From NCBI RefSeq assembly GCF_002000245.1, contig NZ_MTCM01000001.1, forward strand, positions 1,302,001-1,366,000: a stretch of 64,000 nt of DNA, in the 5' to 3' direction. Shown here in pieces: positions 3,149 to 55,137 of the stretch. The DNA is from Sphingobacterium sp. CZ-UAM (GTDB taxonomy: Bacteria; Bacteroidota; Bacteroidia; Sphingobacteriales; Sphingobacteriaceae). The translations under genes and the position numbers were made by a program. Under the pieces are notes generated by a model. That model was not told the DNA's origin. It worked only from the letters and a program-made list of their open reading frames with translations, and did not search any database. Every line of letters begins with the position of its first letter. Position 1 is the first letter of the stretch.

Positions 3149-6100
3149 TTAAAAGGATAACAACACACCCGCATTAAGAAGTCTTGCCTGTGGATAATAT
3201 TGTCCCAGTGCATTTACAGCCTCTGGATCATACATCTTGATTTTGCTCCAAGTGATCAGATTCATCCCGTTTGCATATACACGCAATGAGCCGATACCAA
3301 TCTTATCACAGATTGCTGACGGAAGATTGTAACCCAACTCTACATTTTTTAGACGCAGATAGTCTGTACTCCGCATCCAATAGGTGTTGTTATATGAGTA
3401 ATATTGATTACTACGATCCGTTAATCGAGGGTATTCACTGCTCGGATTAGTTATACTCCAACGTTTATCGTAGAATTCTTCCAGAAAATTACCAATAGAA
3501 CCCGATTCATCGGTACCAACACGGATTTCTCCACCTGTCGCTCCCTGGAACAAAACGGACAAATCAAAATCCTTATAGCTCAAGCTGAAATTAAATCCTC
3601 CCTGGAATGTTGGGTCACTATTTTTATCTCTTCTTACTTTATCGTCTGGAGTAATTTTGTTATCGCCGTTATAGTCTTTATATTTCATATCACCGGGACG
3701 CAAAGTTTTGGTAATGGCGCTATAATCAAGTTTATTAGCGGCGATATCATCCATATCCCGGAACACACCATCATAAATATAGTAGATATCGGTCTTGATA
3801 GGTTTACCTGTACTTTGTTGCCAAGCAGGAGCTCCAGGAGCCTCATCCCAGAAAATAATCTTGTTCTTTGCATAACCGCCATTGACTCCGACAGTATATC
3901 CAAGTTCGCCGACTTTACCCTTATAGCCAAGATTAAATTCCCAACCTTTATTATCGACCTTACCGATGTTTTCAGCAGGTAGCGTCATACCCGTGCTTTG
4001 CGGAACAGAAGCATTTTTTCGCCATAGGATCGAATTCCGACGATTTTTAAAGATATCAAACTCAAAATTTAACTTGCCTTGTAGGAATTGGAAATCAAAA
4101 CCTAAATTATAATTATTGGCAACCTCCCAGGTAACCATTTCATTTGGCACCCGGCTCTCAAATAATGTTTTGGCCAGCTTGTCATCCACAATGTAGGTTC
4201 CAAATGAATAGGTAGAAAAATATTGATACTCTTGCAGTTTATCTTCCCAATAAATATTGTCATTACCCATTTGCCCATACGATGCGCGAATTTTAAAATA
4301 GTTGATAACTGGAATATTTTCCTTCCAGAAATTCTCTTCAGATACTACCCAACCAGCCATTGCACCTGGGAAAAATCCAAAACGTTCACTTTCAGGAAAC
4401 ATATAGGAGCCATCATAACGCCAAAGAAACTCTGCGATATATTTACTTTTATAGTTGTAACCAAAACGCCCAAAATAATTCAAGCGCGCCCTCTTCCAGG
4501 CTGCTCCGTCATTATTTTTCTCCTGTTCCCCACCTGCAAATAGATAATCTATACTATTTGACAGAAAATAACGTCGATAGGCGCTGAATTTGTCGTTATC
4601 TATCGTTTCTCTATTTACCCCTGCAATTGCATTCACTTGATGATCTCCAAATTTCCGGTCGAAGCTTAAAATTCCTCCTAATAGGATATTGAGCTGATCC
4701 TCATTACTTTGATTTAAGTTGGGGTCCGCTGGGCCACGTCGGCCAGCCTGCAATAAAGGTGTTTTACCGTCGGCTTCGTAGGCGCCCGGCCAGGAATACA
4801 AGGTCCAGGGAGTTACCCAGGTTTTCTGGTTGTTTACGTATTTATCTACGGATGCATTTAACGTCAATTTTAGTCCTTCAACCCATGGATTCGTGATATC
4901 TACCTGTCCATTTGTCTGGAAGTAATATCGCTTATCACGATCATAGCCGGTGGCATTCGTTGTAATGACAACAGGATTTTCGCCATTCTCAATATCAGGA
5001 CCAGGTTTTCCATTAGGCCAGATCGCTGGTTGCGTCGGATTTCCGCGCATCAACATCCTAAAAATAGTACCCGCACTTTTTGTAGGGAAATTACGGTTTT
5101 CCTGCCTTCCCAAAACCCCAAACTGTGTTTTGATATATTGACTTATATTCGCATCCAGGTTAATCCGTAAATCATATTGCTTGTAACCGGTTGCAGAATT
5201 TTTGTAATAAGCATCTTGATTTTGATAACCCAGGGACAACAGGTATTTTACATCTTCGGTACCACCATTGATCTGAAGGTTATGACGCTGTTGGGGCGAC
5301 CAATTTTTTAGGGTAGATTTATACCAATCCGTGTTCGGGTGTCCCCAGGGGTCTGAACCATCTTTAAATCTCTGAATATCATCAGGTTTAAAAGGTGCCC
5401 CTAATACGGTTCCGTCCTTTTTTGTATAAGATCCTGTCCCGTTTATAGCGGTCAATGCTGCTGACCATTCGTCCACAGGTAAATTGTAGATCTCGAGCTC
5501 GTTGCGAATTTCCGCAAACTGTGTGGCATCCGTCAACTTTGGAATTACTGTTGGTTGGGAATATCCTTGGTTGAAGGTATAAGAAAATTGTGGCTTACCT
5601 GTCTTTCCACGACGGGTTGTCACAAGGATAACACCATTCGCTGCCCTTGCACCATAGATCGCTGCTGACGCATCTTTTAGCACCGAGATGTTTTCTATAT
5701 CGCGAGGATTAAGCCGTTCGATTCCCCCTTCACGGGCTGGCACACCATCAATAACCACGAGCGGGCTACTATTTCCCAAGGTATTCGTACCACGGATCTT
5801 AATGGTAGAACCATCATATCCAGGCTCCGCGCTACCATTTGTCGCTATTACACCCGGGATTCTGCCTGTCATCGCATTGGAAACATTCAACGCTGGCGAT
5901 TGTGCTAGATCACTCCCTTTTACCGTAGCGACTGCACCAGTTACGGTTTCTTTCCGTTGTTTGCCATAACCAACCACAATGACTTCATCCAAGCTGGATT
6001 GGGAGTTTAGCAATGTCACATCTATGGCACGTCGACCATTGACTACTTCGTCCATGCTCTGTTTACCGACCATCCGGAAATTGACAGTACTATTAGAAGG

Positions 6101-6364
6101 AACTTTGTCTAATTTGTAACGACCTTCATTGTCTGTTTTTGTCACCAAATTAGTTCCATTAACCGAAACGGTTACTCCAGAAATTGGCATTCCTGTTTCA
6201 TCTCGGACAACACCGGTAACACTTAGTTCTTGTTGAAAGAGGTTTGCGTAATGCGCGAAACCGGCGGCATTCACGGACTGGGGACTTAATGCTACTAAAG
6301 AGCATATTGATCCGGTCCAAAATGCTCTCTTCCATTGATTTGAGAAATAATGGCAATTAATCAT
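3149..6364 (-). CDS. SusC/RagA-family TonB-linked outer-membrane transporter
   Basis: TonB-dependent importer of 1071 residues, the usual size for SusC. Order: signal peptide; a carboxypeptidase-regulatory-like Ig domain (about residues 48-115, with TGVVRDETG and the DEVIVVGYG linker characteristic of SusC); plug domain (about 125-255, with VLKDASAAIYGARAANGVI); then a 22-stranded barrel ending in Phe. There is no N-terminal STN domain, so it is not expected to signal to an anti-sigma factor. It pairs with the downstream SusD lipoprotein to import a nutrient. No glycoside hydrolase, peptidase or regulator gene adjoins the pair, so the substrate is unknown. Confidence 0.95.
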   Translation of the reverse strand: MINCHYFSNQWKRAFWTGSICSLVALSPQSVNAAGFAHYANLFQQELSVTGVVRDETGMPISGVTVSVNGTNLVTKTDNEGRYKLDKVPSNSTVNFRMVGKQSMDEVVNGRRAIDVTLLNSQSSLDEVIVVGYGKQRKETVTGAVATVKGSDLAQSPALNVSNAMTGRIPGVIATNGSAEPGYDGSTIKIRGTNTLGNSSPLVVIDGVPAREGGIERLNPRDIENISVLKDASAAIYGARAANGVILVTTRRGKTGKPQFSYTFNQGYSQPTVIPKLTDATQFAEIRNELEIYNLPVDEWSAALTAINGTGSYTKKDGTVLGAPFKPDDIQRFKDGSDPWGHPNTDWYKSTLKNWSPQQRHNLQINGGTEDVKYLLSLGYQNQDAYYKNSATGYKQYDLRINLDANISQYIKTQFGVLGRQENRNFPTKSAGTIFRMLMRGNPTQPAIWPNGKPGPDIENGENPVVITTNATGYDRDKRYYFQTNGQVDITNPWVEGLKLTLNASVDKYVNNQKTWVTPWTLYSWPGAYEADGKTPLLQAGRRGPADPNLNQSNEDQLNILLGGILSFDRKFGDHQVNAIAGVNRETIDNDKFSAYRRYFLSNSIDYLFAGGEQEKNNDGAAWKRARLNYFGRFGYNYKSKYIAEFLWRYDGSYMFPESERFGFFPGAMAGWVVSEENFWKENIPVINYFKIRASYGQMGNDNIYWEDKLQEYQYFSTYSFGTYIVDDKLAKTLFESRVPNEMVTWEVANNYNLGFDFQFLQGKLNFEFDIFKNRRNSILWRKNASVPQSTGMTLPAENIGKVDNKGWEFNLGYKGKVGELGYTVGVNGGYAKNKIIFWDEAPGAPAWQQSTGKPIKTDIYYIYDGVFRDMDDIAANKLDYSAITKTLRPGDMKYKDYNGDNKITPDDKVRRDKNSDPTFQGGFNFSLSYKDFDLSVLFQGATGGEIRVGTDESGSIGNFLEEFYDKRWSITNPSSEYPRLTDRSNQYYSYNNTYWMRSTDYLRLKNVELGYNLPSAICDKIGIGSLRVYANGMNLITWSKIKMYDPEAVNALGQYYPQARLLNAGVLLSF

Positions 6365-6888
6365 AAAAACTGCTTAATGGTTTAAAATTGTATGTTTATT
6401 AGTTATTTATTTGCTTCCACAAGATGCTCGGTTTAGGATCTTATCAAAGGCGGTTTATAATTGAATTTTGAATATATGAAAATACAAAAATAAATAAACA
6501 ATGCAAGTGTTATTTTAACACTATTTACAAACTACACATTAATCACCTTACTTACAATTAATTAACAATCATACCATAGCTAAAAATGTGCTAAAAGAAT
6601 CTTTCTAAATGTCATCGTGTCTAGGCCTCCTATCTTCAATATATAATATAAATCCTGCTATCTGAAAGTCATCGAAAATATCCGTTCAAATACATAATGT
6701 GTCATCATTTTACTTAAAAAAGAACAGTTGTATTATTAAAAAAACATATTATAAGTTTTAATTAGAATGGCGCAATAATTATATAAAAACACGTATTTTT
6801 ATTATCAACGTATTTATTTGTTAATTGCGAACCGCAACAACCACAGTAATTTGGAAAATATATTTTTCTCAAAAAAATCTGCTAAAAA
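6365..6888. promoter_or_regulatory. divergent intergenic region upstream of susC-like and GNAT genes
   Basis: A 524-bp AT-rich gap without a gene. For the minus-strand SusC gene there is one good -7-like element, TATTTTTG, on the minus strand at 6485-6492, about 120 nt before the start codon, but no matching -33 element at the right distance. I see no riboswitch or strong hairpin. No convincing consensus promoter is visible for the GNAT gene. Confidence 0.35.
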
Positions 6889-9359: not shown

Positions 9360-11276
9360 TTATTTGTAGCTTCTTACAGTAGGTTGTATTTCTTCAAAAG
9401 TTAATGGCTCTTTGATCAATTCTGGTTCTTCCCCTTCTCCTTTCCAGGCCCAAGCAGATATAAATTGAAATTCAGCATCATTCCGCAGCGCTTCTCCATC
9501 AGCTGTTTGATATTCCTCCCTAAAATGTGCGCCACAGGATTCTTCACGGGTCAACGCATCATAGCACATCAATTCACCGATTTCAAAATAGTCCGCAACA
9601 CGTCCAGCTTTCTCCAATTCGGTATTTAAAGAATTTGGTTGCCCGCTAACCATGACATTACGATAAAACTCTTGCTTAAGCTTCTTGATTTCCGCTATTG
9701 CATATTTAAGTCCCTGTTCATTCCGGGCTAGGCCACAATAATCATACAGCAGCTTCCCAAGTGTTTTATGAAAATAATCGACGGTTTTATTCCCCTTAAT
9801 CTGTAATAATTCATCAATTTGCTTTTTAACCGCTAACTCCGCCTTTTCAAACTCCAGATGATCTGTAGAAATCTTTCCAGTGTGAATTTCATTCGATAAA
9901 TAATTGGCGATGGTATAAGGCGCAATAAAATAACCGTCCACTGAGGCTTGAAGCAACGAATTTGCCCCTAAGCGATTAGCGCCATGATCTGCAAAATTAG
10001 CTTCACCAAGTGCAAATAGCCCAGGCAAAGTTGTCATCAGCTCGTAATCAACCCAAAGTCCACCCATCGAAAAATGGGCCGAAGGAGATATCATCATCGG
10101 TTCAGAATACGCATCATAGCCCGTTATTTTATGGTACATATCAAAGAGGTTACCATATTTCTCTTCAATTTTTTGCTTCCCTTGTTCCTTGATTGCTTTC
10201 GCAAAGTCAAGGTAGACGGCATTTTTTAAAGGACCTATACCAAAACCAGCGTCAATCCGCTCCTTGGCCGCTCTAGAAGATATATCCCGCGGTGCAAGAT
10301 TCCCGAATGCGGGGTATCGACGTTCGAGGTAATAATCTCGATCTTCTTCTGGGATATCATTGGCGGCTCTGTTTTCATCCTGTTTTAATGGAACCCAAAT
10401 GCGACCATCATTACGTAAGGATTCTGACATCAACGTCAGCTTGGATTGATAATCGCCTGATTGCGGTAAAGAGGTCGGATGAACCTGAATCCAACTTGGG
10501 GATGCCATCAATGCACCTTTTTTATGTGCCCGCCAAATTGCCGAGCCGTTGCAACCCATTGCTAAGGTAGATAGATAATAGATTTTGCCGTATCCACCTG
10601 TTGCAAGTATAACAGCATGCGCTGCATGTCGTTCAATCTCTCCAGTATCTAAATTGCGAACAATAATACCGCGCACTTTCCCGTCAATGACAACGACATC
10701 CAACATCTCATGGCGGGAAAAGAGCTGAACAGTTTTTTTACCAACCTGCCGCATCAGGGCTTGATAAGCTCCCAATAGCAGCTGCTGTCCGGTCTGCCCC
10801 CTTGCGTAGAATGTTCGGCTTACCTGCACCCCTCCAAAAGAACGGTTATTTAGATACCCTCCATATTCACGTCCAAAAGGGACACCTTGCGCCACCGCCT
10901 GATCTATCAAATTCAACGAACATTCAGCCATTCGATAGACATTCGCTTCACGCGCACGAAAATCACCCCCTTTTAAAGTATCCACAAACATACGATAGAC
11001 ACTATCGCCGTCATTCTTATAATTTTTCGCAGCATTGACACCACCTTGGGCTGCTACAGAATGAGCTCTTCGGGGACTGTCCTGAAAACAGAATGATTTG
11101 ACCTGATAGCCCATTTCGCCAAGAGATGCCGCTATTGAGCTTCCCGCTAGACCCGTCCCCACAACAATCACATCCAATTTTTTGCGATTGGCAGGGTTGA
11201 CAAGCTTTGCAGTTTTTTTATAGCGTGTCCACTTTTGCTCCAAAGGTCCCGCTGGTATTTTTGAGTTTAAAATCAT
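9360..11276 (-). CDS. sdhA: succinate dehydrogenase/fumarate reductase flavoprotein subunit
   Basis: Catalytic FAD subunit interconverting succinate and fumarate at the membrane surface, 638 residues. The dinucleotide-binding motif VGTGLAGSS is at 39-47. His72 in the AHSVAAQGG block is the residue that carries covalent FAD in this family. HPTSLP and the RDISSRAA segment with the catalytic Arg region follow. The length and the loop insertions fit the B-type enzymes of Bacteroidota, Bacillus and epsilonproteobacteria. The gene lies 10 nt after sdhC and 11 nt before sdhB. Confidence 0.95.
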
Positions 11277-51645: not shown

Positions 51646-53067
51646 CTAATCCTCGCGGCTACCATCATCAGCCATACGGACAATTTTTGGTGAGAACTTT
51701 GCGACGACGTCCACCAACTCCTCTTGCGAGGCCATGACGGTATGGATGTCTTTGTAGGCCATGGGTGCTTCATCCATCCCGGCTCCCAAAAGCGTAATCC
51801 CCCGATCAGCAAGCATATCTTTCAACTCAGTAGCAGCGAGCGTCTTGATTGCTTGTGTACGGCTCATCAATCGTCCTGCACCATGAGATGCCGATTGGAT
51901 AGCAGCCATCTCCCCTTTTCCGCGCACCAGAAATCCAGGAGTAGCCATGGAACCTGGGATAATTCCCATCACGCCTTTTGCCGCAGGAGTAGCCCCTTTT
52001 CGGTGTACCACAACCTCCCGGTCATTCCAGGTCTCCTTCCACGCAAAATTATGATGGTTTTCAATTTTCGCTAGCAATTCCGCCCCCAAAGCATCTTTGA
52101 TCTTGTCATGAATAACTTCATGGCAGGCTGATGCATAATCACCAGCCAGATTCATTGCCAACCAATATTCTTGTCCTTCCATTGTATTTAAGTCCAGATA
52201 AGCCAGATTTTGAGCTTGATAGGGCAACTTACATAAAGTCTTCGCCAATTTGGTATAGTGAGCAGCCACAGTTGCGCCTAGACCCCGGGATCCCGAATGT
52301 GTCAACAAACCCAGGTAAAGTCCTTTCTCAATGTTCAGCTCCGCATCCTTTTCAACAAACTCCACAATCCCAAATTCCACAAAGTGATTCCCTCCACCGG
52401 AAGAACCTAACTGTGTCCATGCCTTATCTTTTAAGGATCTAAGCAGATCATTTTCTGCAAACAATTTATTGTCCAGGACGGCATGATCCACACGTTCATG
52501 CTTCAGATAGCCATTGCCGGCACCAAATCGCGTATGTTTCAGAATAGTCTCTTTTAATGTCGCCGTATCTGTATCCAATAAGGATGCTGGCAGATCAAAG
52601 ATGGACAAAACCATTCGGCAACCAATATCAACGCCAACTCCGTAAGGAATTACAGCATTATCGGTGGCCAATACACCACCGATCGGCAGTCCGTATCCTT
52701 GATGGGCATCGGGCATCAAAGCGCCAGCAACCGTAACCGGCAGCTTCATGGCTACTTTCATCTGTTCTTTAGCTCCTGCTTCTATTCCGGACGCGCCATA
52801 AATTGTATATTCCACAGGATCTTCATTCAAAGCAATTAATGTGGCATCAACAACATCCTGTCCTAGTATGGACTCTGCCAACACACTGAAAATAGTATCT
52901 TCAGTATACGCTGTTGGATTTTCCAGCACAGATTTAAATTTGGCTAACATTTCTGCTCGCGTAAAACCATGTCGCTTGCTGTTGATTTTCAACGCAGCAC
53001 CCAATGTATGGTTCTCTTTATATCCTAATGCAATCAGATCATTGCCATTAATTCTTTTATTTTCCAT
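51646..53067 (-). CDS. rtcB: RtcB-family RNA ligase
   Basis: GTP- and Mn-dependent ligase that joins RNA 3'-phosphate or 2',3'-cyclic phosphate ends to 5'-hydroxyl ends; 473 residues. Family blocks are intact: GVDIGCRM with metal-binding Asp147 and Cys150, NHFVEFG, THSGSRGLG and the HGAGR block near the end, which lies at the guanylylation site. The start at 53067 gives the family's usual N-terminus; a frame to 53106 only adds an unconserved stretch. It follows the slipin gene by 113 nt, on the same strand as an upstream array of tRNA-like RNAs, so the natural inference is repair of cleaved tRNA or of the array RNA itself. No RtcA cyclase, RtcR activator or Ro60 gene is in the window. Confidence 0.95.
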   Translation of the reverse strand: MENKRINGNDLIALGYKENHTLGAALKINSKRHGFTRAEMLAKFKSVLENPTAYTEDTIFSVLAESILGQDVVDATLIALNEDPVEYTIYGASGIEAGAKEQMKVAMKLPVTVAGALMPDAHQGYGLPIGGVLATDNAVIPYGVGVDIGCRMVLSIFDLPASLLDTDTATLKETILKHTRFGAGNGYLKHERVDHAVLDNKLFAENDLLRSLKDKAWTQLGSSGGGNHFVEFGIVEFVEKDAELNIEKGLYLGLLTHSGSRGLGATVAAHYTKLAKTLCKLPYQAQNLAYLDLNTMEGQEYWLAMNLAGDYASACHEVIHDKIKDALGAELLAKIENHHNFAWKETWNDREVVVHRKGATPAAKGVMGIIPGSMATPGFLVRGKGEMAAIQSASHGAGRLMSRTQAIKTLAATELKDMLADRGITLLGAGMDEAPMAYKDIHTVMASQEELVDVVAKFSPKIVRMADDGSRED

Positions 53068-53087
53068 TTTTATCTTTTTTAACAAGG

Positions 53088-53138
53088 GGGATCTTTCCAG
53101 TCCCAAGCAGGTAGCAACACATCTTTACAATTGCTACC
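53088..53138 (-). other. two stem-loops between slipin and rtcB
   Basis: In the 113-nt gap the minus strand folds GGTAGCAA / TTGCTACC (53110-53117 with 53131-53138, 8 bp, 13-nt loop) and GGGA / TCCC (53088-53091 with 53101-53104). No U-run follows the first, so it is more likely a processing or binding element than a terminator. Confidence 0.6.
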
Positions 53139-53180
53139 CGCACCTCTTTTGTCCTCAATTTTATTAACTTCCCTTTGTCG

Positions 53181-54278
53181 CTACTTTACAAACAACTGCT
53201 TTAATTGATCTACAATCTGCCCATTGCCCGAAATAGAAATGTTATTGATCCTTTCGGCAATTTTCTCCACATACTCCATTTCCTTCAATTTAAACAACAT
53301 CGCATTCTCCTCCATAAGTTTTGCCGTATTCAGCAAACTTCTAGTCGAAGCAGTTTCTTCACGGCGCATAATAATATTTGCCTGAGCGCGCTTTTCAGCG
53401 ATCAACACCTGGTTCATGATATCACGGACATCCCCTGGCAGAATAATATCTTTGACTCCGCAAGTTAATAGACGTAAGCCTAATCCAGCAATATACTCCA
53501 TCGTATTTTGCAAAATATAAGTGCTTATCTCCGTCTTCTTGTCCATCAGTTCATCCAGCGTCATTTGACCGATATAGGTCCGGAGATTTAACTGCATCAC
53601 GGCATACAATTGCTTTTCATATTCCTTATTATCCAACAGCGCTTTGACGATATCAACGATTTGATATTGTAAAGTGAAATTGATCCGTATTTGTGCTTTG
53701 TCCCGCGATAGAATCTCCTGACCCACCACATCCAAAGTTAACACACGCATATCTGCCTTTGACACCGCAATTGTCTTTGCGTTCTTCCACCAGCAATACG
53801 TCCCTGAATCCAAAATTTCTGTAAACACGCCATCAACAAAAAGTAATCCTTTCTCATTTGGTTCAACTTTGTATTGACGGATATAATAAGCCAACGTTTG
53901 CTTTTCAAACAATTGACGGTTGACAGAAACTGGTATTTCGATCTCCGAAATATCCTCCAGCTGAAATTTGCGTGATTGCAACCCTTTCCAGAACACATGT
54001 CTACCTGCCGCTAAGGTCTTTTCAAAATTATTGCTTAAGAAAACCAACGCAATTTCCGTATCCGCCACTTCAACAATATCCACCAGTTCACGAAAGCCCT
54101 CCACCTGCAAGAGCACATCAATGTTATGGTTAGACGGAAACGAATTTGCCCTATTGTATGTCTCCAGTTTCTCACCAAAACCCAACCAGTACTTACCGGC
54201 TTCCAATACACGGATAACTTGGTTATTTTTAACCACCAATCCAATCTCATTGACATTTACTTGTACTCTTTTCATCAT
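53181..54278 (-). CDS. slipin (SPFH/band 7) protein of the RtcB operon, no membrane anchor
   Basis: 365 residues. The SPFH domain core is recognisable around residues 175-300 (LTLDVVGQEILSRDKAQIRINFTLQYQIVD; LRTYIGQMTLDELM; then GLRLLTCGVKDIILP), followed by a helical, probably coiled-coil tail (AEKRAQANIIMRREE to LMEENAMLFKLKEME). Unlike stomatin and most slipins it has no N-terminal hydrophobic hairpin; instead there are about 170 residues of beta-rich sequence. So it should be cytosolic or only peripherally bound and may form a ring or cage. Slipins recur in RtcB repair operons, and this one lies between the tRNA-like array and rtcB. Confidence 0.9.
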   Translation of the reverse strand: MMKRVQVNVNEIGLVVKNNQVIRVLEAGKYWLGFGEKLETYNRANSFPSNHNIDVLLQVEGFRELVDIVEVADTEIALVFLSNNFEKTLAAGRHVFWKGLQSRKFQLEDISEIEIPVSVNRQLFEKQTLAYYIRQYKVEPNEKGLLFVDGVFTEILDSGTYCWWKNAKTIAVSKADMRVLTLDVVGQEILSRDKAQIRINFTLQYQIVDIVKALLDNKEYEKQLYAVMQLNLRTYIGQMTLDELMDKKTEISTYILQNTMEYIAGLGLRLLTCGVKDIILPGDVRDIMNQVLIAEKRAQANIIMRREETASTRSLLNTAKLMEENAMLFKLKEMEYVEKIAERINNISISGNGQIVDQLKQLFVK

Positions 54279-54292
54279 ATTTATTGTTTATA

Positions 54293-54510
54293 CTATTTTC
54301 TAATGACAAAACTTGCTATGAGCTGCCCATCGATGCCGAGCGGGATCAAAAAGAGCCCATACGGAGCTTTACCGTAGAAGCGTTCGAAATGACCGCCTGA
54401 GCGATCCACGACAACGCTCTTCCTGTATCGTCTCTGTATGAGATGTTCCCGATCACGGGCTCACCACCGACTGCGATGAAGAAAAACGAAGTTCTCCTCC
54501 CTGCCGGACA
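54293..54510 (-). other. GC-rich structured island between tRNA-like array and slipin gene
   Basis: About 54% GC by hand count over 54311-54510, against roughly 40% around it. On the minus strand it is full of short hairpins: CCCG-TGAT-CGGG, TCTC-ATACA-GAGA, GAGCG/CGCTC and TACGG-TAAAGCT-CCGTA (5-bp stem, 7-nt loop). One frame has 55 sense codons between a TGA (54463-54461) and a TAG (54295-54293) with a protein-like end (FERFYGKAPYGLFLIPLGID), and the same frame is open for more than 20 codons before the TGA. It has no start codon with a ribosome site. It is either structured RNA or a decayed or recoded small gene. Confidence 0.5.
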
Positions 54511-54583
54511 GACTATAGCAAGCTTTATTTAAATCACCTTTTTAAAGAAGGTATAACTTTCAAAACCAGAACCTAAATTCTGT

Positions 54584-54635
54584 GCAATACCCTTATGCTA
54601 TTCCATCCGAAAATGGAAGTGGGATTCGAACCCAC
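54584..54635 (-). ncRNA. permuted tRNA-like module 3 (UUCG-capped)
   Basis: T-arm GTGGG-TTCGAAT-CCCAC (54635-54619). It is followed directly by a 7-bp acceptor-like stem TTCCATT / GATGGAA capped by a TTCG tetraloop (54618-54601), then TA, then D-arm GCAT-AAGGGTA-TTGC (54598-54584, three pairs). The 7-bp stem equals a normal acceptor stem in length but has no free end. Confidence 0.8.
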
Positions 54636-54649
54636 ACGATTGAGTTGTT

Positions 54650-54702
54650 GTTCTAACCAAGCTGAACTATCCTGATTGCTCAGGAGCAGGAGTCGAACCT
54701 GC
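54650..54702 (-). ncRNA. permuted tRNA-like module 2 (GCAA-capped)
   Basis: T-arm GCAGG-TTCGACT-CCTGC (54702-54686). Then comes a perfect 6-bp stem TCCTGA / TCAGGA capped by the GNRA tetraloop GCAA (54685-54670), TA, and D-arm GTTC-AGCTTGGTTA-GAAC (54667-54650). Only 14 nt with no stable stem join it to the T-arm of module 3, where a tRNA would have a 17-nt anticodon arm plus variable loop. Confidence 0.85.
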
Positions 54703-54723
54703 GACCTACAACGGAACTGCCGT

Positions 54724-54769
54724 GCTCTACCCTTGAGCTACCTCTTTCGAGGGAAGGATTCGAACCTTC
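54724..54769 (-). ncRNA. permuted tRNA-like module 1 (GAAA-capped)
   Basis: T-arm GAAGG-TTCGAAT-CCTTC (54769-54753), a 4-bp stem CCTC / GAGG capped by the GNRA tetraloop GAAA (54752-54741), TA, and D-arm GCTC-AAGGGTA-GAGC (54738-54724). The 21-nt linker to module 2 can form ACGG-CAGTT-CCGT, a reduced anticodon-arm-like hairpin. Confidence 0.85.
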
Positions 54770-55005
54770 AACCCTGGTGGCAACCTTCTCTCATTCTCCT
54801 TTTCTTATCAGTATATTGAGTCCCATCGGGAACAATACTATCCTGCTATACAGAAACAGGAGACTAGGATGCAAATCAAAGAATAAGAGTCTTTTTATAC
54901 TTCTCCTAAAAAGAAGTACATATCTTAAAAGCATTTTGCTAGTTTTCATCAAAGAACGTTTATCATTGCTGACATTACAAAGATCGCTCTGTTAACGTGC
55001 AGACC

Positions 55006-55137
55006 ATTTGCGCAATGAAATAAAACACAAAGAAAATAATAAAAATAAATGCAACACACTGATAATAAACTACAAAAAGTTAAAAACAAACGTTAGCATT
55101 AAAAATTAGAAGCCTAACTACGCAATTATATTGCGCA
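55006..55137. promoter_or_regulatory. TTGCGCA motifs and palindrome in the array/lipoprotein divergent region
   Basis: A perfect inverted repeat CGCAAT-TAT-ATTGCG at 55121-55135 and a near-palindrome CATTTGCGCAATG at 55005-55017 share TTGCGCA. They lie between the minus-strand array and the plus-strand lipoprotein gene and are candidate operator sites. No consensus -33/-7 promoter with correct spacing was found for the array; the best -7 is the one-mismatch GATCTTTG (minus, 54985-54978). Confidence 0.4.

What the first reader, a model, noticed from the sequence alone, without database searches (positions are those of the whole stretch)
51646..54918. Slipin-RtcB operon headed by a tandem tRNA-mimic RNA array
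The minus strand carries, in order, a 380-nt array of tRNA-like modules, a GC-rich island, a slipin without membrane anchor, and the RNA ligase RtcB. RtcB rejoins RNAs cut by ribonucleases, including tRNAs. Known RtcB operons of enterobacteria carry YrlA-type RNAs with a tRNA-like domain and Ro60, and slipins are recurrent partners. A multi-module array next to slipin and rtcB without Ro60, RtcA or RtcR suggests a distinct RNA-repair or sensing system in which the array acts as decoy, substrate, scaffold or sensor for tRNA-cutting toxins or phage enzymes. The link between parts is inferred from order and strand.
Basis: partly seen in the sequence, partly recalled or inferred. Interest (0 to 1): 0.95.

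Follow-up and report, generated by a model that had tools for sequence, protein, structure and literature searches.

The report
Slipin-linked tandem tRNA-mimic repair RNA
In many Bacteroidota bacteria the gene for a slipin protein, usually beside the gene for the RNA-sealing enzyme RtcB, is preceded by a stretch that folds as repeated, rearranged tRNA look-alikes; as RNA it likely acts with the slipin as a scaffold for mending broken tRNAs, in the place that the Ro60 protein and its Y RNA hold in related bacteria.

Summary
In this Sphingobacterium-like window the minus strand carries one structured leader in front of slipin and rtcB: a new 'head' element, three tandem permuted tRNA-like modules (T arm, loop-capped acceptor stem, D arm, no anticodon arm) and a long-range-paired tail (the 'GC island'). 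All three parts covary. The modules have the YrlA (bacterial Y RNA) topology, but the window genome has no Ro60 and the leader lacks the Y-stem motif. In 300 genomes of the order the module occurs in 92: 78 also have the slipin; 13 of the other 14 have Ro60 just upstream of the module. The head occurs in 81 genomes, all with slipin. A divergent WYL regulator often flanks the operon; in the window genome its operator-like palindrome occurs three times: before the WYL gene, this operon, and a pair of RlaP RNA-repair enzymes. In some other Bacteroidota real tRNA genes precede slipin. Best reading: a slipin-based RNA-repair ribonucleoprotein in which slipin and the head replace Ro60 and the Y stem. 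Transcription, binding and function are untested. New variant of a known kind (Ro60/Y-RNA/RtcB repair), with a partner that resembles vault protein.

The parts
55119..55137 (.). WYL operator-like palindrome TRCGCA-N7-TGCGYA
   Evidence: Only hit of the looser pattern in the 64 kb; one of three sites in the 5.84 Mb genome. Binding not tested.
54950..54981 (-). Conserved Bacteroidota-type promoter (-33 TTTG, -7 TTCTTTG) with an inner palindrome TGTCR-N4-YGACA in most relatives
   Evidence: Alignment of 15 loci; the promoter consensus is recalled, not from a call; a start of transcription near 54943 is inferred.
54807..54862 (-). Head element of the leader (not tRNA-like), candidate slipin-binding part
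   Evidence: R2 68.5 bits; covariation score 0.546 vs 0.165 shuffled; in the order sample seen only in slipin genomes.
54723..54769 (-). Permuted tRNA-like module 1 (4-bp capped acceptor stem, GAAA loop)
   Evidence: R1 61.1 bits.
54649..54702 (-). Permuted tRNA-like module 2 (6-bp capped acceptor stem, GCAA loop)
   Evidence: R1 60.9 bits; overlaps the Rfam YrlA match 54645-54710, 37.9 bits.
54583..54635 (-). Permuted tRNA-like module 3 (7-bp capped acceptor stem, TTCG loop)
   Evidence: R1 62.5 bits.
54535..54553 (-). Short conserved hairpin between modules and tail
   Evidence: Columns 82-100 of A3, 4 of 6 pairs with two-sided changes.
54309..54525 (-).
   Evidence: 18 of 20 pairs with two-sided changes, 96.9% paired.
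53181..54278 (-). Slipin (SPFH/Band_7), 365 aa, no membrane anchor, three N-terminal tandem beta repeats in the predicted model
   Evidence: Pfam PF01145 87.3 bits; model and fold searches.
51646..53067 (-). RtcB RNA ligase, 473 aa from its ATG, conserved motifs present
   Evidence: Pfam PF01139 286.2 bits; motifs found (their meaning is recalled).

Best explanation
The window carries, in front of slipin and rtcB, a leader with a head element, three tandem permuted tRNA-like modules and a tail, whose folds covary across relatives, and this leader likely works as the RNA half of a slipin-based RNA-repair particle in which slipin would bind the head as Ro60 binds the Y stem. Proposed steps: (1) RNA damage, most likely cut tRNAs, is sensed by a WYL regulator (inferred). 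(2) The WYL regulator switches three promoters: its own, this operon and the RlaP pair (the three palindromes are shown, binding is inferred). (3) The leader RNA is made and folds (fold supported by covariation; expression not tested). (4) Slipin, expected by family to form rings or cages, holds the RNA by its head (inferred from co-occurrence). (5) The modules, which keep the elbow and acceptor side of tRNA but have no anticodon arm, dock tRNA-handling proteins (inferred), so that RlaP restores lost nucleotides and RtcB seals the break (from the roles known or predicted for these families).
For: Module fold covaries, head covaries, tail covaries; leader z -5.18. Same draw of 300 genomes of the order: module R1 in 92, slipin in 84, Ro60 in 49, head R2 in 81. 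R1 and slipin together in 78; of the 14 R1 genomes without slipin 13 have Ro60; all 81 head genomes have slipin; none of the 14 has the head. In all 13 a module lies within about 510 nt downstream of Ro60 on the same strand. The Y-stem motif is found at 9 of these 13 loci and in no slipin-only leader of 22 genus and 80 named loci. At Pedobacter-like loci the WYL gene, the RNA, RtcB and often RlaP stay while Ro60 or slipin is swapped; L178 has both, with a stemmed Y RNA behind Ro60 and a weak head plus two modules before slipin. Three palindromes in 5.84 Mb, at WYL, this operon and RlaP-RlaP. 73 of the 78 R1-plus-slipin genomes have no Ro60 match.
Against: No expression or binding data. R2 was built only from slipin loci and R1 only from slipin leaders of the genus, and the 300 genomes include source genomes of both, so presence counts lean towards slipin; far relatives score weakly (phylum sample: 16 of 18 loci at E up to 0.05, many of them partial). 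Three slipin genomes lack R2 at the cut-off. The strict Y-stem motif is missing at 4 of the 13 Ro60 loci (L186, L187, L189, L190; a variant is visible in L186). Seven of the 40 distinct genus modules do not fit the canonical form and were left out of the covariation count. The leader lies 5' of slipin, so a cis-regulatory role is not excluded. Two genomes with slipin and modules (G331, G336) have no RtcB match. L107 and L167 have a weak or no module.
Confidence: 0.6

Rival explanations
1. The leader is a cis-acting control element: the tRNA-like modules and tail sense tRNA processing or damage and adjust expression of slipin and rtcB from the same transcript.
For: It lies between the conserved promoter and the slipin start, and the tail helix ends about 30 nt from the ATG.
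Against: At Ro60 loci the same module occurs behind Ro60 in stemmed units rather than as the leader of Ro60, so the module is not tied to being a leader. I did not search for terminators or for a second, alternative fold.
Confidence: 0.22
2. The modules are decoys that soak up tRNA-cutting or tRNA-modifying toxins or phage enzymes.
For: Elbow and acceptor side of tRNA are mimicked, in at least two copies in 70 of 80 named loci; real tRNA genes sit beside slipin in some relatives.
Against: No anticodon arm, so anticodon nucleases have no site; in Salmonella no YrlA fragments were detected when tRNAs were cut, though the authors leave competitive inhibition open (PMC7790460, passages). Does not explain the head or its tie to slipin.
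Confidence: 0.1
3. It is an ordinary Y RNA for Ro60 acting in trans, or a remnant of one.
For: Same permuted tRNA-like domain; YrlA sub-threshold match; second loci with R1 at 53.7-56.9 bits in three genomes of the genus lie behind a Ro60-like gene (TROVE by Pfam in one, and in two).
Against: No Ro60 match in the window genome nor in 73 of 78 R1-plus-slipin genomes; Y-stem motif absent; covariation shows that the fold is kept.
Confidence: 0.04
4. The modules are decayed tRNA genes of a lost tRNA operon with no present role.
For: In some relatives true tRNA genes lie just upstream, and R1 also matches junctions of tandem tRNA genes, for example in L158.
Against: Compensatory changes in all three helices, and 70 of 80 loci keep at least two modules (a second module counted from 17 bits).
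Confidence: 0.03

Closest known systems
YrlA bacterial Y RNA with Ro60 (Rsr) in rsr-yrlBA-rtcBA operons (Salmonella; PMC7790460 and PMC8394870, passages)
   Same: T arm, loop-capped acceptor stem, D arm in circularly permuted order; beside an rtcB operon; Ro60 loci of the same bacteria carry the same module.
   Different: Two to three modules in tandem, no Y-stem motif, a new head and tail, slipin instead of Ro60, a WYL regulator rather than RtcR beside it, RlaP under the same palindrome.
Anabaena TrcR regulon (PMC10272220: abstract and passages)
   Same: One repressor controls a spare 26-gene tRNA operon, rtcB and a slipin-family gene (alr0740).
   Different: RHH repressor, not WYL; genes at separate places; no permuted tRNA-like RNA in the passages seen.
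Vault particle (major vault protein, TEP1 with TROVE domain, vault RNA; PMC13174449 abstract and passages)
   Same: SPFH-type protein with N-terminal tandem beta repeats and a C-terminal helix; TROVE protein and small RNA occur in the same operon family.
   Different: 365 residues and three repeats; the likeness rests on a predicted model; stomatin scores higher over its domain; no particle shown.
Stomatin/slipin SPFH proteins
   Same: Band_7 domain; best sequence and fold matches are stomatins.
   Different: No membrane anchor; extra N-terminal repeats; tied to an RNA element.

Membership tests
YrlA RNA (Rfam RF02553) | Permuted tRNA-like domain: T arm, capped acceptor-like stem, D arm | tested here: met
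   Y RNA as circularly permuted tRNA from PMC11472068 passages.
YrlA RNA (Rfam RF02553) | Score at or above the family's gathering cut-off | tested here: not met
   37.9 bits against 69; no gathering hit in the window. The Ro60-linked Y RNA of L059 is also below it (39.9 bits).
YrlA RNA (Rfam RF02553) | Basal stem that binds Ro60 | tested here: not met
   Tested as a sequence motif: present at 9 of 13 Ro60-only R1 loci and L059-L061, L178, L159; absent from slipin-only leaders. That this motif is the Ro60-binding stem is recalled and from its position.
YrlA RNA (Rfam RF02553) | Ro60 (TROVE) protein in the genome | tested here: not met
   0 TROVE matches in G000 at E 1e-5.
YrlA RNA (Rfam RF02553) | Binds PNPase; modified by DusA and TruB | not testable with these tools
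   Stated for YrlA in PMC8394870 (passages).
tRNA gene | Anticodon arm between D and T arms | tested here: not met
   ARAGORN 0; linkers between a D arm and the next T arm are 20 and 13 nt in the window (coordinates).
Rtc RNA-repair operon | RtcB ligase with conserved motifs | tested here: met
Rtc RNA-repair operon | RtcA cyclase and sigma-54 regulator RtcR | not tested
   None among the seven neighbours scanned; genome not searched for them.
Slipin/stomatin (SPFH) | SPFH/Band_7 domain | tested here: met
Slipin/stomatin (SPFH) | N-terminal membrane anchor | tested here: not met
   Max 19-residue hydropathy 1.36, at residue 262.
Vault (MVP-type) protein | Tandem beta repeats, SPFH-like shoulder and cap helix in one chain | tested here: inconclusive
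Vault (MVP-type) protein | Forms a large barrel with RNA | not testable with these tools
   Needs electron microscopy.

The most novel reading that the evidence does not exclude
Slipin and its head-bearing, tandem tRNA-mimic RNA form a bacterial vault-like ribonucleoprotein, a non-homologous replacement for Ro60-Y RNA, which gathers cut tRNAs, RlaP and RtcB (or, in relatives, comes with a spare tRNA set) when a WYL sensor detects damaged RNA.
Probability: 0.3. Interest if true: 0.95.

Novelty: new variant of a known kind. Interest (0 to 1): 0.86.

Why it matters
It shows a structured RNA family with a partner swap that can be tested directly: the tRNA-like part is shared, while one element goes with Ro60 (Y stem) and another with slipin (head). 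That makes the open question of what the tRNA-like domain of bacterial Y RNAs does approachable without Ro60, offers a role for slipins that sit beside RtcB, supplies a candidate three-promoter WYL regulon for RNA damage in Bacteroidota, and hints at a common logic with vaults, where an SPFH-type cage, a TROVE protein and a small RNA also meet.
Full report
What is there. The window lies in a 5.84 Mb genome, contig C1 1302001-1366000; the nearest named slipin loci are Sphingobacterium. On the minus strand a conserved promoter is followed by a leader of about 650 nt, then slipin (54278-53181) and rtcB (53067-51646). The leader has three covarying parts: a head (54862-54807), three tRNA-like modules (54769-54723, 54702-54649, 54635-54583) and a tail (54525-54309). 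The promoter consensus is recalled and the start near 54943 is inferred; no transcript was seen.

The modules. Each is a T arm of 5 bp with a TTCRANT-type loop, then a 4-7-bp stem closed by a small loop, then TA and a D arm of 4 bp with GG in its loop in most. [quoted passage not shown] PMC8394870). The Rfam YrlA model agrees at 37.9 bits, E 1.6e-6, below its cut-off of 69. Over 30 chosen modules of the genus 94.3% of cells pair, 13 of 15 pairs change on both sides, and the score is 0.656 against 0.281 for shuffles and at most 0.178 for slid partners; the number of further pair types (27) is not above the shuffles (26.0). Seven of the 40 distinct modules depart from the form and were left out. 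No anticodon arm fits: the linkers between a D arm and the next T arm are 20 and 13 nt in the window, and ARAGORN finds no tRNA.

Head and tail. The head is a hairpin with a much-conserved loop (TTTCTGTATAG in many Sphingobacterium) plus a second stem; over 50 loci 94.5% of cells pair, score 0.546 against 0.165 shuffled and at most 0.161 slid; the count of pairs with two-sided change (7) equals the shuffles (6.9), the weak point of this test. The tail is closed by a 20-bp helix of which 18 pairs change on both sides; for tail plus small hairpin the score is 0.699 against 0.329 shuffled and at most 0.180 slid. The tail structure was predicted on the same alignment, so it leans towards itself. 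The leader from head to slipin folds better than 100 shuffles (z -5.18).

Conservation with slipin. A genome-contig scan with the slipin gave 80 named loci from Sphingobacterium, Pedobacter, Taibaiella, Emticicia, Lacihabitans, Saprospiraceae, Flavobacteriaceae and others (the best 80 of 566). A module of at least 30 bits lies 150-750 nt upstream of slipin in 78 of 80 (not L107, L167), and at least two modules (the second from 17 bits) in 70 of 80. In the fetched flanks 71 of 80 have an RtcB match, 57 a WYL match (some cut by the flank) and 23 RlaP; in L151, L154, L164 and L166 rtcB lies upstream of slipin. Starting from the RNA, the 26 newly fetched best-scoring loci all have slipin and 25 a divergent WYL. 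In a phylum sample slipin occurs in 20 of 395 genomes; of 18 loci fetched there for the first time (overlap with the named loci under other handles was not checked) 17 have a full-length module match of 36.5 bits or more and 16 a head match at E up to 0.05, many of the latter partial.

Ro60 and slipin swap around the same module. In one draw of 300 genomes of the order (which includes source genomes of the models), module R1 (E 1e-10) occurs in 92, slipin (E 1e-40) in 84, Ro60/TROVE (E 1e-5) in 49 and head R2 (E 1e-5) in 81. R1 and slipin coincide in 78. Of the 14 R1 genomes without slipin 13 have Ro60; the other, G008, keeps modules and rtcB but has no slipin at the locus. In all 13 a module lies within about 510 nt downstream of Ro60 on the same strand. 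All 81 head genomes have slipin and none of the 14 has the head. Slipin genomes without R2 at the cut-off are G192, G241 and G263; the last two have weak heads (32.5 and 29.1 bits in L178 and L192). Only 5 genomes have both slipin and Ro60. Conversely a stem motif GTGYCGTA..GAGTTACTTCG, which I take for the Ro60-binding stem, is seen at 9 of the 13 Ro60 loci and at L059-L061, L178 and L159, not at L186, L187, L189 and L190 (a variant is visible in L186), and in no slipin-only leader; the two upstream hits in the 80 loci are L136, the named record that matches L178 and has Ro60, and L100, inside the WYL gene. L178 carries both sets: Ro60 with a stemmed Y RNA, then a weak head, two modules and slipin. 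R1 was built from slipin leaders only, yet finds Ro60-linked Y RNAs of three genomes of the genus at 53.7-56.9 bits. So the tRNA-like part is shared and one element goes with each protein. That slipin binds the head is inferred.

Regulation. WYL regulators (PF13280 with WCX) face the array at many loci. In the window clade the WYL gene is elsewhere: its ortholog (64% identity) lies at C1:103181-104194. A palindrome read off these promoters occurs, in a loose form, upstream of slipin in 22 of 22 genus loci and 67 of 80 named loci. In its strict form TRCGCA-N7-TGCGYA it occurs three times in the whole window genome (reversed-pattern control: one; about 0.8 expected at an assumed 40% G+C): 48 nt before WYL, at window 55119-55137, and 160-180 nt before a pair of RlaP genes (PF10127). 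In 23 of 80 named loci RlaP genes lie in the slipin operon region itself, and with Ro60 in several Pedobacter-like loci. This points to a scattered three-part RNA-repair regulon. RlaP is predicted to restore nucleotides lost at RNA breaks (PMC7824862 passages), and WYL domains are predicted ligand sensors (PMC4012209 passages); that this WYL senses cut tRNA is inferred.

Spare tRNAs. In some other Bacteroidota true tRNA genes lie beside slipin: 8 of 27 named loci scanned and 8 of 18 phylum loci. UBA2475 has 19 tRNAs for 17 amino acids around slipin; Gaetbulibacter has nine before it, each with a same-anticodon tRNA elsewhere that is only 52-69% identical. Neither genome shows an RtcB match, but the UBA genome is a metagenome draft. 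This resembles the spare trn operon of Anabaena, which shares a repressor with rtcB and a slipin-family gene (PMC10272220). It suggests two answers to tRNA damage at one operon, mending or replacing; this is inferred.

Judgement. The observation and its conservation are firm. That this is a Y-RNA-type RNA freed from Ro60 and tied to slipin is well supported by co-occurrence. The repair-particle mechanism is the best current reading (0.6), with a cis-regulatory leader as main rival (0.22). It does not pass as YrlA: Ro60 stem motif and Ro60 were tested and not met, and it misses the Rfam cut-off (as the Ro60-linked Y RNAs of these bacteria also do).

Noticed in passing
L193 (G331:C18:66000-85000), slipin 9894-11069: 19 tRNA genes for 17 amino acids flank a slipin with head and two modules; the genome (a metagenome draft) shows no RtcB match.
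   Followed up: partly
L198 (G336:C3:574000-589000), 6045-6744: Nine tRNA genes before slipin, each a divergent duplicate (52-69% identical) of a same-anticodon tRNA elsewhere in Gaetbulibacter; no RtcB match in the genome.
   Followed up: yes
L194, L195, L196: RNA-repair islands: T4-type RNA ligase (PF09414) in L194 and L195, Thg1 and an RtcB followed by an RF-1-domain protein in L195, Ro60, tRNA genes and slipin in L194 and L196, S24 peptidase and RNase T-like exonuclease after slipin in L196.
   Followed up: partly
L200: In Taibaiella the slipin/RlaP region is followed by a polynucleotide kinase-phosphatase (HAD_PNKP), with a Ro60-like gene and WYL upstream.
   Followed up: no
L158 5382-5436: R1 also matches the junction of two tandem tRNA genes (Glu and Gly here), which hints that Y-RNA-type domains could have arisen from such junctions by loss of anticodon arms.
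   Followed up: no
L062 1985-2077 minus: A Flavo-1 RNA (RF01705, 60 bits, above cut-off) lies in the WYL-array intergenic region; a weaker match at 2109-2191 plus.
   Followed up: no
L058 (G008:C34): Slipin is gone from the locus but rtcB and two modules remain; the last module carries changes in loop and stem and may be decaying.
   Followed up: partly
window 53138-53110 minus: A GGTAGCAA/TTGCTACC inverted repeat lies between slipin and rtcB, without a T run (read by eye).
   Followed up: no
L038 4162-5583; G145, G084, G237 slipin: Some relatives have an rtcB split over two frames or a slipin with an in-frame stop.
   Followed up: no
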